DNA of 38,571 bases. Source: Hyphomonadaceae bacterium. Lineage in GTDB: Bacteria > Pseudomonadota > Alphaproteobacteria > Caulobacterales > Hyphomonadaceae. Made by a program: the position numbers and the translations under genes. The DNA lies in NCBI GenBank assembly GCA_022760335.1, contig JALEGE010000128.1, forward strand, positions 1 to 38,571, written 5' to 3'. The notes beneath the pieces were generated by a model that did no database searches, had not been told where the DNA came from, and saw only the letters and a list, made by a program, of their open reading frames with translations. Positions 30,624-34,707 of the stretch are shown piece after piece; the first letter of the stretch is position 1; each line of letters begins with the position of its first letter.

Positions 30624-31742
30624 ATGAAACTGACGATCGAACGCGGTGACCTTCTCGGTGCGCTCTCCCATGTCCAGAATGTGGTGGAGCGGCGCAATAC
30701 CATTCCGATCCTGTCCAATATCCTGCTCACCGCCAGCGATGGCGCGCTGACGCTGACGGCCACCGATCTTGATATCGAGGCGGTCGACAGCGCCCCGGCC
30801 AGCATTTCCAAGGAAGGCGCAATCACCGCACCGGCCGGCACCCTGTTTGATGTGGTGCGCAAACTGCCCGGTGGAGCCGATGTGGAACTTTCCCTGGATC
30901 CGGGCAACAACCGCCTGTCGATCCAGTCTGGTCGCTCGCAGTTCGCACTGCCCACCCTGCCCGCTTCGGATTTCCAGACCATGGGCGGCGATGACGAAGC
31001 CACCCGGTTCGAAGTCGACGCAGCCGATCTGCGCCGCCTGATCGACAAGACGCGGTTTGCCATCTCCACTGAAGAGACGCGCTATTATCTCAATGGCGTC
31101 TATCTGCACGCCGCCGATGGCGATGGCGGCAAGGTCTTGCGCTGTGTGGCGACCGATGGCCACCGTCTCGCGCTCGCCGAAACGCCCGCGCCGAAAGGCT
31201 CTGAAAACCTCGAAGGCGTGATCGTGCCGCGCAAGGCCGTCACCGAGGCGCGCCGCCTGATCGATGCGGCCTCCGAGCCAGTTACACTGGAGGTCTCAGA
31301 CAACAAGATCGTTGTGCGTTCGGGTAATGCCGTGCTCACCGCCAAACTGATCGATGGCAGTTTTCCTGACTATGCCCGCGTCATTCCCCAGGGCAATGAC
31401 AAGAAACTCACCATCGACAACAAGGCTTTCGAAGCCGCGGTTGATCGCGTCTCCACTGTTTCGGCGGAGCGTTCACGCTCGGTGAAAATGAGCATGGAAG
31501 ATGGCCGGTTGGTGCTCGCCGTCAGCCACGCCGAAACCGGCCAGGGTCATGAGGAAATCGAGGCGGATTACGCTCACGAGCCCATGGAAATCGGCTTCAA
31601 TGCCAAATATCTGCTCGATATTGCCGGACAGATTGAGGCCGCCGATGCGGAGTTCCTGTTCAACGATCCGGCAAGCCCTGCCCTGGTGCTCGACCCCGAA
31701 GACGCTCACGCGCAATATGTGTTGATGCCGCTGCGCGTATAA
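30624..31742 (+). CDS. dnaN: DNA polymerase III sliding clamp (beta subunit)
   Basis: 372 residues, standard for DnaN. It begins MKLTIERGDLLGALSHVQNV followed by VERRNTIPILSNILL. Three repeated clamp domains are recognisable (FALPTLPASDFQTM, TRFAISTEETRYYLNGVYLH, GFNAKYLLDI). The C-terminal YVLMPLRV is the canonical end, part of the peptide-binding cleft. It forms the ring that tethers polymerase III. A double terminator separates it from dnaA. Downstream, a minus-strand gene ends only 10 bases away, and recF follows after that. Confidence 0.97.
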   Translation: MKLTIERGDLLGALSHVQNVVERRNTIPILSNILLTASDGALTLTATDLDIEAVDSAPASISKEGAITAPAGTLFDVVRKLPGGADVELSLDPGNNRLSIQSGRSQFALPTLPASDFQTMGGDDEATRFEVDAADLRRLIDKTRFAISTEETRYYLNGVYLHAADGDGGKVLRCVATDGHRLALAETPAPKGSENLEGVIVPRKAVTEARRLIDAASEPVTLEVSDNKIVVRSGNAVLTAKLIDGSFPDYARVIPQGNDKKLTIDNKAFEAAVDRVSTVSAERSRSVKMSMEDGRLVLAVSHAETGQGHEEIEADYAHEPMEIGFNAKYLLDIAGQIEAADAEFLFNDPASPALVLDPEDAHAQYVLMPLRV

Positions 31743-31752
31743 ACAGGCCGGC

Positions 31753-33513
31753 TCAGGCGCGCTGGGCACCGAATGTGGCATAGTCTACGTCCGACATTTT
31801 CAGCGCGTCCCAGACATAGGCGGCGAGATGATCGGTCAGCGTGCGTATCCGGTCGGGGGTCCAGTCTTCACACTTGCGCACCCAGTAAACCAGGTTCAGC
31901 CCCTCCAGCTCGCTCTCCCTTTGCGTCAGGGCGGCCATCTTCTCTTCGAAGGTGTCATCGCCGAAGCCCTGATTGATGCTGCGCGGCAAAAGGATGAGAT
32001 TGCCCAATAGGTTCATCACATCGCGGCGGGTTTGCCAGTCGGGGAACTCCTTCAGCCAGCCTGCGGGCAGATGAGTTGAAACCGGCAGGACATGTTCAAC
32101 GGTCATGTCGCGCAGGAAACTGTAGGGGGCGCCAGACATGATGTATTCGATCCAGACAACCGTCGACCGGCGCAACTGATACTGATCGAACGCGCCCGTC
32201 AGCGCGCTATGGATGCGGATCAGGTCCGCCTGCCACATGACCAGCGATTCCAGCCGGTCCGGCGTGGCACCATCCTTGAGCTCCTCAATTGCCTTGGCGA
32301 AGACCAGTTGCCGTTTCATTGGGCTGAACCCTGCCAACTCCATGGCAATGGCAGCGCGGTGCATCTGATCGAAGATGCGCGCGCGCCAGGGCGGCCCAGC
32401 GCTTTCCATCTGGCTGGCGCGGCCCATCACCCGCAGGGCCAGCGGTTTCCACTCTGTCCACCAGACTGCGCGAATTGGCAACAGCGGATTGAAAGGGCTT
32501 GATTGTCCGCCCATGGCCGGCTGGTGCAGCGTGTTCCAGTCCGTCGCGCATTTGTGCAGGAACCGGAAATAGCCCGTCAGCCCCTTGGCCGTGCCATGGC
32601 GGCTTTTCATCAGATCGACAAAACCATTCAGCCGCTCGACGGTGCTGGGCTTGTGATCGGGTGTGTCGGGAGTAAACCGTTCCATCATTTCCAGCGCCAG
32701 GACAAAGCCCTGAAAACCGCTATAGCGGTCATAACGGTGGCTTTCCTCGACCTGGTCCACCCGCGCCTGGCTACGCGCGGTCAAAGCCTGACGGATATCC
32801 TGCCAGGCCGTCAGCAACTCCTCGACCTCTTCGGCGCTGCCGGGAAACTCAGCCAGACGCGACTTGATAAGATCGGCATCCTCCAGTTTCAGCCCGCGCA
32901 TATTGATGGTGCGGAAAATCCGGTTCGCCATGGCTGGTGTCGCCACGCTAAGCCGCAGGATCAGAACACGTTCAAGCACCGTCCAGGCAAGAAAATACAA
33001 AGTGCGCGGCGACAGGGTACGCAGCTGGTCGCGCATATGTTTCTGAGCTGCGCGCAACACTTCGGCCTGGCCTGTCAACCGCCCGGAAGCCAGGCTGAGT
33101 GACTTGCCGCGCGGCTGGATATGGGTGGCAAGATACTGATGGCCGATCAGTTTCAAGCGCGGCTCGCCCTTGCGGTCAAACACACAGGCCTGCAGGCGGG
33201 TTTTCAGCTCCGCATCCTGAATCATGTCACGCAACAAGCAGATCAGGATGGTCAGCGTGGTAATGCGCTGCAAGCCGTCATAGAGACGGAACTGCTGGTT
33301 CATCCCATGCACGATGATCACACCGACGAAATAGGCATCCTCTTCAGCTTCACCATCGGGCGGCACGGCAAAAGTGATGAGATCATCCAGCAGTTCGCTG
33401 ACCTGCTCAGCTGTCCACTGATAGTCGCGCTGGATATCGGCTGGTTCCATCCAGCTATTGCCAAGTACAAACTCCAAAGTGTCGGAGATCGGCTGTAAAT
33501 GATGCATGCTCAT
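31753..33513 (-). CDS. DUF262-DUF1524 protein, GmrSD-type restriction nuclease family
   Basis: 586 residues from ATG 33513. A TTG 12 codons upstream has no support. ATG 33507 is also possible. N-terminal DUF262: IQRDYQW (27-33), LYDGLQRITTL (79-83 DGLQR) and FRTINMRGLKLEDADLIKS. The ParB-like nucleotide-binding motif is normally DGQQR. Here the third residue is Leu. C-terminal DUF1524 HNH-like nuclease: TVEHVLP (H474), LLGNLILLP (N505), RSINQGFGDD (N514) and FEEK. The fused architecture is that of GmrSD type IV enzymes, which cut modified phage DNA, and of relatives in SspE and BrxU systems. It sits antiparallel between dnaN and recF, 10 bases from dnaN and divergent from recF. No methylase or partner gene is next to it, so it would act alone. 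Confidence 0.85.
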   Translation of the reverse strand: MSMHHLQPISDTLEFVLGNSWMEPADIQRDYQWTAEQVSELLDDLITFAVPPDGEAEEDAYFVGVIIVHGMNQQFRLYDGLQRITTLTILICLLRDMIQDAELKTRLQACVFDRKGEPRLKLIGHQYLATHIQPRGKSLSLASGRLTGQAEVLRAAQKHMRDQLRTLSPRTLYFLAWTVLERVLILRLSVATPAMANRIFRTINMRGLKLEDADLIKSRLAEFPGSAEEVEELLTAWQDIRQALTARSQARVDQVEESHRYDRYSGFQGFVLALEMMERFTPDTPDHKPSTVERLNGFVDLMKSRHGTAKGLTGYFRFLHKCATDWNTLHQPAMGGQSSPFNPLLPIRAVWWTEWKPLALRVMGRASQMESAGPPWRARIFDQMHRAAIAMELAGFSPMKRQLVFAKAIEELKDGATPDRLESLVMWQADLIRIHSALTGAFDQYQLRRSTVVWIEYIMSGAPYSFLRDMTVEHVLPVSTHLPAGWLKEFPDWQTRRDVMNLLGNLILLPRSINQGFGDDTFEEKMAALTQRESELEGLNLVYWVRKCEDWTPDRIRTLTDHLAAYVWDALKMSDVDYATFGAQRA

Positions 33514-33588
33514 GCTTCTCGCCCCACACGAAGCCTGAAAAGCATACAATCAAGGACTTTAAGGCACGTCGAGGATAGAAATCGATTT

Positions 33589-34707
33589 ATGACCACTTTG
33601 ACACGACTTCGCCTGACAGATTTCCGGAATTATGAGCAACTTGACCTGAAATTGGACGGTCGACACGTCTGTCTGTATGGAGCCAATGGCGCGGGAAAGA
33701 CCAATCTGCTCGAGGCAATCAGCCAACTTGGGCCCGGCCGCGGGCTGCGCTCGGCCGCGCTAACGGACCTTACCCGCCATGGCGCGCAAGGCGGGTGGAC
33801 CGTCTCGGGCGAATTGGAAGACCGGCGCATCGGGGTTGGGCTGGACCGGTCTGGCTCAGGCAACAAGCGCACCGTGCGAATTGATGGCGAAACCGCCTCA
33901 CCCAGCGACCTGGCGGATCTCATCCGTATCGTGTGGCTCACCCCCGCCATGGACTCCGTATTCCGGGGCAGCGCGTCTGACCGGCGGCGCTTCTTCGACC
34001 GGCAAGTGATGGCCCATTTGCCTGCCCATGGCCCGGCGGCCGCGCGCTATGAAAAGGCGATGCGCGAGCGCAATGCCCTGCTGGAGCGCCAATATGTCGA
34101 CCCGGCCTGGGCCGATGCCATAGAGGCGCGCATGGCCGAGGCCGGCGCGGAGCTCGCCATCGGCCGCGCCCTGGTGCTGGAGCGCCTGCAGAGCTCGGTC
34201 AATGATCGCCCCGAAGGCGCCTTCCCCAAAGCCGACCTTGCCCTGGAAGGCGAGGCCGAGGAGATGGCCGTGGCCGGCGCGGGCCTTGCCGAGATCGAGG
34301 AGACGCTGGCCGAACAATGGGCCGGCATGCGCCATGTCGACAAGAAGGCCGGGCGCACGCTGAAGGGCCCGCACCGGGCCGATCTTTCCGTCATTCACCG
34401 CCCCACCGCCATGCCGGCCAAGGATGCCTCCACCGGCCAGCAGAAGGCCCTGCTGATCGGGCTGATCCTGGCATCCGCGCAAGGCCTGGCGCGCGGCGCG
34501 GGCGGGCCGACGCCGTTCCTGTTGTTGGACGAAGCCGCCGCGCATCTCGACATGGATCGCCGGGCGGCCCTGTTCGACGAGCTGTCCGCCCTGCCCGGCC
34601 AGGCTTGGCTCACCGGCACGGAGGCCTTTCTGTTCGAAGCCTTTGCCGAGCGCGCGCAGCATGTCGCCGTGGATGCCGGCGCAGCCCGACTGGACAGCCT
34701 TGATTGA
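33589..34707 (+). CDS. recF: DNA replication and repair protein RecF
   Basis: 372 residues from ATG 33589 (MTTLTRLRLTDFRNYEQLDL). The open frame is longer upstream but that part overlaps the divergent gene's start. ABC/SMC-type ATPase: Walker A YGANGAGKTNLLEAIS, FRGSASDRRRFFDRQVM, signature STGQQKALLIGLILA and Walker B FLLLDEAAAHLD. Role: with RecO and RecR it loads RecA at single-strand gaps. The ribosome site is weak (GAGGA 13 bases upstream). In Caulobacter gyrB follows recF. Here an exported peptidase follows directly instead. The 75 bases between it and the DUF262 gene start hold both divergent promoters. Confidence 0.95.
   Translation: MTTLTRLRLTDFRNYEQLDLKLDGRHVCLYGANGAGKTNLLEAISQLGPGRGLRSAALTDLTRHGAQGGWTVSGELEDRRIGVGLDRSGSGNKRTVRIDGETASPSDLADLIRIVWLTPAMDSVFRGSASDRRRFFDRQVMAHLPAHGPAAARYEKAMRERNALLERQYVDPAWADAIEARMAEAGAELAIGRALVLERLQSSVNDRPEGAFPKADLALEGEAEEMAVAGAGLAEIEETLAEQWAGMRHVDKKAGRTLKGPHRADLSVIHRPTAMPAKDASTGQQKALLIGLILASAQGLARGAGGPTPFLLLDEAAAHLDMDRRAALFDELSALPGQAWLTGTEAFLFEAFAERAQHVAVDAGAARLDSLD

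What the first reader, a model, noticed from the sequence alone, without database searches (positions are those of the whole stretch)
31753..33513. GmrSD-like nuclease inserted between dnaN and recF
dnaN and recF are core replication and repair genes, and a DUF262-DUF1524 gene here on the opposite strand looks like an accessory insertion of a defence gene. Its DUF262 nucleotide motif is DGLQR rather than DGQQR, so specificity or control may differ. No mobility genes or partner genes flank it. It is a stand-alone candidate antiphage factor, or one domesticated to act near the origin.
Basis: partly seen in the sequence, partly recalled or inferred. Interest (0 to 1): 0.65.

Follow-up and report, generated by a model that had tools for sequence, protein, structure and literature searches.

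The report
Lone GmrSD-type nuclease beside recF
A single intact gene for a DNA-cutting, defence-type enzyme sits in a gap between two core replication and repair genes of an alphaproteobacterium; it belongs to a divergent branch of a known enzyme family with an altered sensor pocket and seems to have arrived by recombination together with part of its neighbour recF.

Summary
Its predicted fold matches DndI, SspE and BrxU over nearly full length. The DGLQR motif is real but marks a whole clade (one branch, 100/100). In all 57 proteins read, DGLQR goes with an aliphatic residue before the QR motif and DGQQR with an aromatic one, at the position that senses phosphorothioate in DndI/SspE. The Gln and Arg shown to matter for hydrolysis and the nuclease His/Asn are kept. 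The site is not a defence hotspot: of 99 readable family intervals only two hold such a gene, this one and its nearest relative (31% identical, another genus) in the same slot and orientation; other long intervals hold unrelated genes. Silent sites of the first 120 recF codons are anomalous, which suggests that the gene came with a recF flank by homologous recombination. Most likely it is a stand-alone, type IV-like antiphage or anti-plasmid nuclease with a changed sensor; the cue is unknown. 'Domesticated near the origin' is not supported. New variant of a known kind; interest 0.45.

The parts
31753..33513 (-). GmrSD-type (DUF262-DUF1524) nuclease gene, 586 aa, DGLQR clade
33415..33432 (-). 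QR motif QRDYQW (residues 28-33); the residue before it is Ile27 where DndI/SspE have the phosphorothioate-sensing Tyr
33265..33279 (-). DGLQR (residues 79-83), counterpart of DGQQR; BrxU Q100 position is Leu, Q101 and R102 positions kept
32083..32097 (-). EHVLP of the His-Me finger (residues 473-477)
   Evidence: motif definition in PMC4619093
31987..32007 (-). LGNLILL of the His-Me finger (residues 503-509)
30624..31742 (+). dnaN; the nuclease converges on it, 10 bases between the two genes
33589..34707 (+). recF, diverges from the nuclease (75-base gap)
33589..33948 (+). first 120 codons of recF: silent sites anomalous against the sister genome, probable part of the imported tract
33514..33588 (.). 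shared divergent intergenic region; the sigma-70 scan found no promoter-like site

Best explanation
The gene encodes a stand-alone GmrSD-type restriction nuclease of a divergent clade. SHOWN here by sequence or model: a DUF262 domain joined by a helical linker to a His-Me finger nuclease, with the QR, DGxQR, FxxxN, EH and GN motifs present and a fold like DndI/SspE/BrxU; two clade-fixed changes in the sensor domain (aromatic to aliphatic before QR, Q to L in DGQQR); patchy presence, in 2 of 99 readable family intervals. INFERRED: DUF262 binds and hydrolyses NTP and gates the nuclease, as in BrxU and DndI, since the Gln and Arg needed for hydrolysis are kept; the altered pocket reads a cue other than phosphorothioate (another base modification or another feature of foreign DNA), and on that cue the nuclease nicks or cuts phage or plasmid DNA. 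It reached this slot by homologous recombination that carried about 360 bp of recF with it, from a donor that already had the gene beside recF, so that no mobility gene was needed.
For: Domains (both in 20 of 20 clade members of alignment A2). PADLOC best HEC-06 117 bits, Orf5 103, SspE 44. Model pLDDT 86.3, pTM 0.75; all 7 Foldseek matches at E <= 0.001 are SspE, DndI or BrxU; VIA-align Z 20.9 to DndI over 512 residues (rmsd 7.9), 20.5 to SspE, 12.7-13.0 to BrxU. BrxU Q101A and R102A lose hydrolysis and phage resistance (PMC8565348, passages), DndI R87A likewise (PMC11662687, passages): both positions kept here. DndI Y25 senses phosphorothioate and is Ile27 here (alignment); no dndC hit (TIGR03183) in the genome. 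Clade: one split 100/100. Interval. Recombination tract: third-position identity to the sister genome 57/120 in recF codons 1-120 against 178/238 in the rest (Fisher p 5.6e-7), the largest drop of 406 pairs (0.273; largest without this genome 0.175), GC3 0.683 against 0.846 (sister 0.833 and 0.845), no such change in dnaN (82/120 against 168/252, p 0.81). A lone DUF262-DUF1524 protein, PFLU4242, causes megaplasmid cost with SOS induction (PMC8544851, passages).
Against: No target and no activity data. No linkage to other defence genes, the usual hint for defence. The full-length alignments to DndI and SspE have large rmsd (7.9 and about 20), so domain placement differs or is flexible. Q-to-L in a motif that PMC4619093 calls conserved in nearly 100% of sequences might impair NTP hydrolysis instead; the Q100 position is not among the 11 BrxU single mutants listed, so its effect is unknown. 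The recF breakpoint (codon 120) was chosen after looking at the windows. The donor is unsampled: the best third-position match of the anomalous tract among the rows compared is only 0.479.
Confidence: 0.6

Rival explanations
1. Ancient vertical gene: the nuclease entered the dnaN-recF gap once, before the genera split, and was lost in nearly all descendants; this genome and G102 are the survivors.
For: Same slot and orientation in two genera; the two proteins pair in the tree (100/97, 98/97 with G102 trimmed); G102 dnaN and recF group with its own genus (100/99), so the G102 locus was not handed over whole from this genus.
Against: Only 2 of 99 readable intervals keep it; on the 30-row dnaN/recF tree one gain needs about five losses (my count) against two arrivals; no decayed remnant in 49 loci (tblastn, best E 0.34); the recF 5' anomaly speaks for import here. 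Both proteins are long branches.
Confidence: 0.2
2. Domesticated housekeeping role at the replication origin or in repair, together with dnaN and recF.
For: Position beside dnaA, dnaN and recF; PMC4619093 lists SMC_N proteins (which it takes as RecF or RecN homologues) as enriched near GmrSD genes (passage).
Against: Absent from the two other genomes of the genus and from 97 of 99 readable family intervals; clade relatives sit beside rnpA-yidC, ABC-F/prfC, type I secretion or acyl-CoA dehydrogenase genes; opposite strand to dnaN and recF.
Confidence: 0.05
3. A silenced or decaying enzyme: Q-to-L removes NTP hydrolysis and the gene drifts.
For: DGQQR is said to be conserved in nearly 100% of GmrS sequences (PMC4619093); the protein is a long branch.
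Against: The change is fixed in the clade (24 of 24 DGLQR proteins read), which keeps 37 invariant columns in 12 members, among them H474, G504 and N505; the ORF is intact and its third-position GC is normal.
Confidence: 0.1

Closest known systems
HEC-06 / Orf5 (PADLOC models of GmrSD-like proteins)
   Same: Best library matches (117 and 103 bits), same size and domain order; HEC-06 is described as working alone (PMC11411939, passage)
   Different: Match is split into 2-3 stretches and weaker than that of the genome's own DGQQR paralogue to Orf5 (269 bits in one nearly full-length stretch); DGLQR and an aliphatic residue before QR
DndI (PDB 9JFL, Salmonella Cerro 87)
   Same: Fold over 512 residues, Z 20.9; only sequence match in the PDB (E 2.3e-6); hydrolysis Arg and HNH His kept
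   Different: No dndC found in the genome, no dnd genes beside it, phosphorothioate-sensing Tyr25 replaced by Ile
SspE
   Same: Fold, Z 19-21, domain order
   Different: Shorter (586 against 771 aa for 7DRS), Tyr30 counterpart replaced, no ssp genes beside it
BrxU / GmrSD type IV restriction enzymes
   Same: Pfam domains, Z 12.7-13.0 to BrxU, Q101 and R102 counterparts and His kept
   Different: Q100 counterpart is Leu; not within a BREX or R-M locus; lone chromosomal gene
PFLU4242 of Pseudomonas fluorescens SBW25
   Same: Lone chromosomal DUF262-DUF1524 gene (PMC8544851, passages)
   Different: Sequence not compared here; its known effect is on megaplasmid carriage

Membership tests
GmrSD family (DUF262-DUF1524) | Both Pfam domains above their cut-offs in one protein | tested here: met
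GmrSD family (DUF262-DUF1524) | QR and FxxxN motifs in the N-terminal domain | tested here: met
   Q28 R29; F200-N204; motif definition from PMC4619093
GmrSD family (DUF262-DUF1524) | DGQQR motif, said to be conserved in nearly 100% of sequences | tested here: not met
   DGLQR at 79-83, fixed in the clade; so described as a variant clade beside the standard members, not as a standard member
GmrSD family (DUF262-DUF1524) | E/D-H-N-N His-Me finger motifs in the C-terminal domain | tested here: met
   EHVLP 473-477, LGNLILL 503-509, N514; the NxxF motif reads DDTF here
GmrSD family (DUF262-DUF1524) | Cleaves modified DNA | not testable with these tools
   needs a biochemical assay
SspE/DndI phosphorothioate-dependent effectors | Overall fold | tested here: met
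SspE/DndI phosphorothioate-dependent effectors | Phosphorothioate-sensing Tyr (DndI Y25, SspE Y30) | tested here: not met
   Ile27 at that place in the phmmer alignment (role from PMC11662687)
SspE/DndI phosphorothioate-dependent effectors | Phosphorothioate modification genes in the genome | tested here: inconclusive
   no dndC (TIGR03183) match at E <= 0.001 in a 97% complete genome; sspABCD not searched
HEC-06 | Best match of the PADLOC library | tested here: met
   1.9e-34, but in 3 separate stretches
HEC-06 | Embedded in an Hma or other defence locus | tested here: not met
   core genes on both sides
Defence hotspot (dnaN-recF interval) | Same interval holds varied defence genes in relatives | tested here: not met
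   20 of the 41 other intervals over 150 bases were opened, all those over 500 bases except G121; products judged by eye: SDR, S9 peptidase, EamA, IS3 transposase, GDPD-like and small proteins

The most novel reading that the evidence does not exclude
The DGLQR proteins are an undescribed clade of GmrSD nucleases, so far read (by record titles) only in Proteobacteria and nearly all Alphaproteobacteria, whose sensor pocket was remodelled in two places to read a signal other than phosphorothioate or the known cytosine modifications, and which travel as single genes between core chromosomal slots by homologous recombination through the flanking housekeeping genes, outside defence islands and without any mobility gene.
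Probability: 0.25. Interest if true: 0.65.

Novelty: new variant of a known kind. Interest (0 to 1): 0.45.

Why it matters
Defence genes are mostly found by their company in defence islands. A clade of restriction-type nucleases that sits alone among core genes would be missed that way, and the tract in recF suggests a simple route by which such single genes spread. The paired change before QR and in DGQQR gives a sharp experimental handle on what the DUF262 pocket senses, which is open for most of this family.

Tried and rejected
Close relatives by exact peptide patterns in genome contigs: none. Viral contigs with the clade alignment: none. Plasmid records at E 1e-20: none; phage records: one weak partial hit. 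Class and phylum searches at E 1e-25: only this genome in 385 and 398 genomes; profile search in 260 class genomes at 1e-80: only this genome; in 299 order genomes at 1e-90: 9, all of them already seen. Insertion-type repeats at the gene's ends: none convincing, only short matches mostly inside the gene. Promoter scan: none found. Foreign composition of the gene as a whole: no, GC 59.1% against 61.2% for the contig, GC3 73.1% against 71.3% in dnaN. Long-branch artefact for the pairing with G102: with either one left out, the other stays in an unresolved fork with the other DGLQR rows, so the pairing rests on the two sequences themselves and on the shared slot. The comparison of the flanks with the sister genome was first run on the wrong strand and repeated. 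In the first 150-genome survey the gene seemed unique to this genome; G102 was not in that set, and the remaining family genomes were then added. The clade search of named genomes used patterns that contain DGLQR, so its 21 loci cannot tell how often DGLQR occurs; the BLAST-based set and the profile search are free of the pattern. Searches for print in the held library: DUF262 with DUF1524 (19 papers), DUF262 from 2023 (14), HEC-06 (11), dnaN+recF+GmrSD (0), DGLQR (1, unrelated), Hyphomonadaceae+GmrSD (0): nothing on this clade or site in the listings and passages seen.

Full report
WHAT IS THERE. The window is one whole contig (C54) of a 97% complete genome of 3.5 Mb. At 31753-33513 on the minus strand lies an ORF of 586 aa from the first ATG. 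It holds GmrSD_N (DUF262) at residues 26-220 and GmrSD_C (DUF1524) at 469-564, both over Pfam's cut-offs. dnaN ends at 31742 and recF begins at 33589; the nuclease converges on dnaN and diverges from recF. Nothing mobile and no partner gene lies within about 5 kb: ECH, dnaA, dnaN, recF, an S9 peptidase, a GNAT.

STRUCTURE. A model built from the window protein and 19 relatives has mean pLDDT 86.3 and pTM 0.75. All 7 Foldseek matches at E <= 0.001 are SspE, DndI or BrxU. VIA-align gives Z 20.9 to DndI (512 residues, rmsd 7.9), 21.4 to an SspE C-terminal domain (349 residues, rmsd 4.0), 20.5 to SspE and 12.7-13.0 to BrxU; the first unrelated row is at 6.5. By sequence, only DndI matches in the PDB (E 2.3e-6). 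The full-length rmsd values are large, so the relative placing of the domains is not settled.

THE DGLQR MOTIF. PMC4619093 (passages) says DGQQR is conserved in nearly 100% of GmrS sequences. Here it is DGLQR, and so it is in the nearest relatives: in a set of 37 proteins found by BLAST, 14 with DGLQR and 23 with DGQQR fall on two sides of one branch with support 100/100. In 57 distinct proteins read in the loci then held, all 24 with DGLQR have an aliphatic residue before the QR motif (Val 19, Ile 4, Ala 1) and all 33 with DGQQR an aromatic one (Tyr 32, Phe 1). Some of these came from a pattern search that contained DGLQR, so the pairing, not the frequency, is what counts, and one branch means one event. 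That residue is Tyr25 in DndI, which senses phosphorothioate (PMC11662687, passages). In BrxU the Q101A and R102A mutants lose hydrolysis and resistance; Q100, the position that is Leu here, is not among the 11 single mutants listed (PMC8565348, passages). So the residues known to be needed for hydrolysis are kept and the pocket next to them is changed.

THE SITE. In 150 relatives, dnaN and recF were found on one contig and strand in 145; 19 genomes not covered or not readable there were searched. Of the 105 family genomes the interval can be read in 99 (86 and 13); not readable are G003, G018, G030, G059, G087 and G098. Only this genome and G102 have room for the nuclease and hold it. The other two genomes of the genus lack it: G001 with a gap of 15 bases, G002 with 271. 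Of the 145 intervals, 103 are at most 150 bases. Twenty of the 41 other intervals over 150 bases were opened, namely all over 500 bases except G121 (dnaN and recF 110 kb apart) and two shorter ones; read by eye they hold short-chain dehydrogenases (G012, G040, G052, G072), S9 peptidases (G137, G156), an EamA transporter (G149), an IS3-type transposase (G152), a glycerophosphodiester phosphodiesterase-like gene (G150) and small proteins (names not checked with a library). So it is a permissive gap, not a defence hotspot.

THE TWIN IN G102. The nearest relative, 31% identical over 574 residues, lies in G102 (another genus) in the same gap and orientation: dnaN to base 715 of L087, the nuclease on the other strand, recF from 2521. 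Yet G102's dnaN and recF group with its own genus (100/99). The two nucleases are sisters in the trees (100/97; 98/97), both on long branches.

THE TRACT IN recF. Between this genome and its sister G002, third codon positions agree at 57 of 120 in recF codons 1-120 but at 178 of 238 in codons 121-360 (Fisher p 5.6e-7). This is the largest drop among 406 pairs of rows compared (0.273; the largest without this genome is 0.175). GC3 of the stretch is 0.683 against 0.846 for the rest, while G002 has 0.833 and 0.845. dnaN shows no such change. Protein identity in the stretch stays near 90%. The breakpoint was chosen after seeing the windows, so the p-value is optimistic, but it survives correction for the number of pairs. 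One other row, G010 (L063), also has a lower GC3 in this stretch (0.658 against 0.787), so low GC3 alone is not proof. The simplest reading is that nuclease and 5' recF came together by homologous recombination from an unsampled donor which had the gene in the same slot.

THE CLADE ELSEWHERE. A profile search of the 105 family genomes gave 19 strong matches (E <= 2.2e-129) in 17 genomes, and a separate weaker group (E 3e-76 and weaker) in about 98 by my count of the list; G062 is unclear because its only match is a fragment. The strong matches whose loci were read have DGLQR. Read by eye, they sit beside rnpA-yidC (G008, G017, G023; G008 by its place in the tree and not opened wide), ABC-F and prfC (g5 genomes and G157 of another family), a type I secretion operon (G027, G017 C9) or acyl-CoA dehydrogenase genes (G000 C190, G002 C31). 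No one partner gene recurs across these sites. The weaker group is the DGQQR gene; in 11 genomes opened it lies in a partly shared neighbourhood.

HOW IT LIKELY WORKS. Shown for relatives, inferred here: NTP binding and hydrolysis in DUF262 gate the His-Me nuclease; in DndI the sensor lets the enzyme leave self DNA, in BrxU hydrolysis precedes the cutting of modified phage DNA. With hydrolysis and nuclease residues kept and the sensor pocket changed, a type IV-like nuclease with another cue is the best reading. PFLU4242, a lone DUF262-DUF1524 gene, makes megaplasmids costly through SOS (PMC8544851, passages), so plasmids are as good a candidate target as phages. Phosphorothioate dependence is unlikely: the sensing Tyr is gone and no dndC was found (ssp genes not searched).

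VERDICT. The sequence observation is right. The defence reading is plausible but untested; hotspot and origin domestication are not supported. What is new is the clade with its paired pocket change, the same-slot twin in another genus, and the probable recombination scar in recF.

Noticed in passing
L085:8438-10087 (G000 C213) and counterparts: A DGQQR GmrSD-like gene (Orf5/HEC-06 type) is present in about 98 of 105 Hyphomonadaceae genomes (my count), in a partly shared neighbourhood: a restriction-type nuclease that behaves like a core gene.
   Followed up: partly
G002 dnaN-recF gap (L035, bases 1230-1500): The 271-base gap of the sister genome holds a GC-rich palindromic, MITE-like repeat (read by eye).
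   Followed up: no
L086:8154-10304 (G000 C190): A second DGLQR gene in the same genome, with an orthologue in G002 in the same neighbourhood.
   Followed up: partly
L013, L014, L015, L090: The g5/G157 subgroup of the DGLQR clade has a gap where the others have residues after GNLxLLP, so its nuclease motif may differ.
   Followed up: no
G012, G040, G052, G072 (L069-L072): Short-chain dehydrogenase genes share the dnaN-recF gap in two genera, another same-slot pattern.
   Followed up: no
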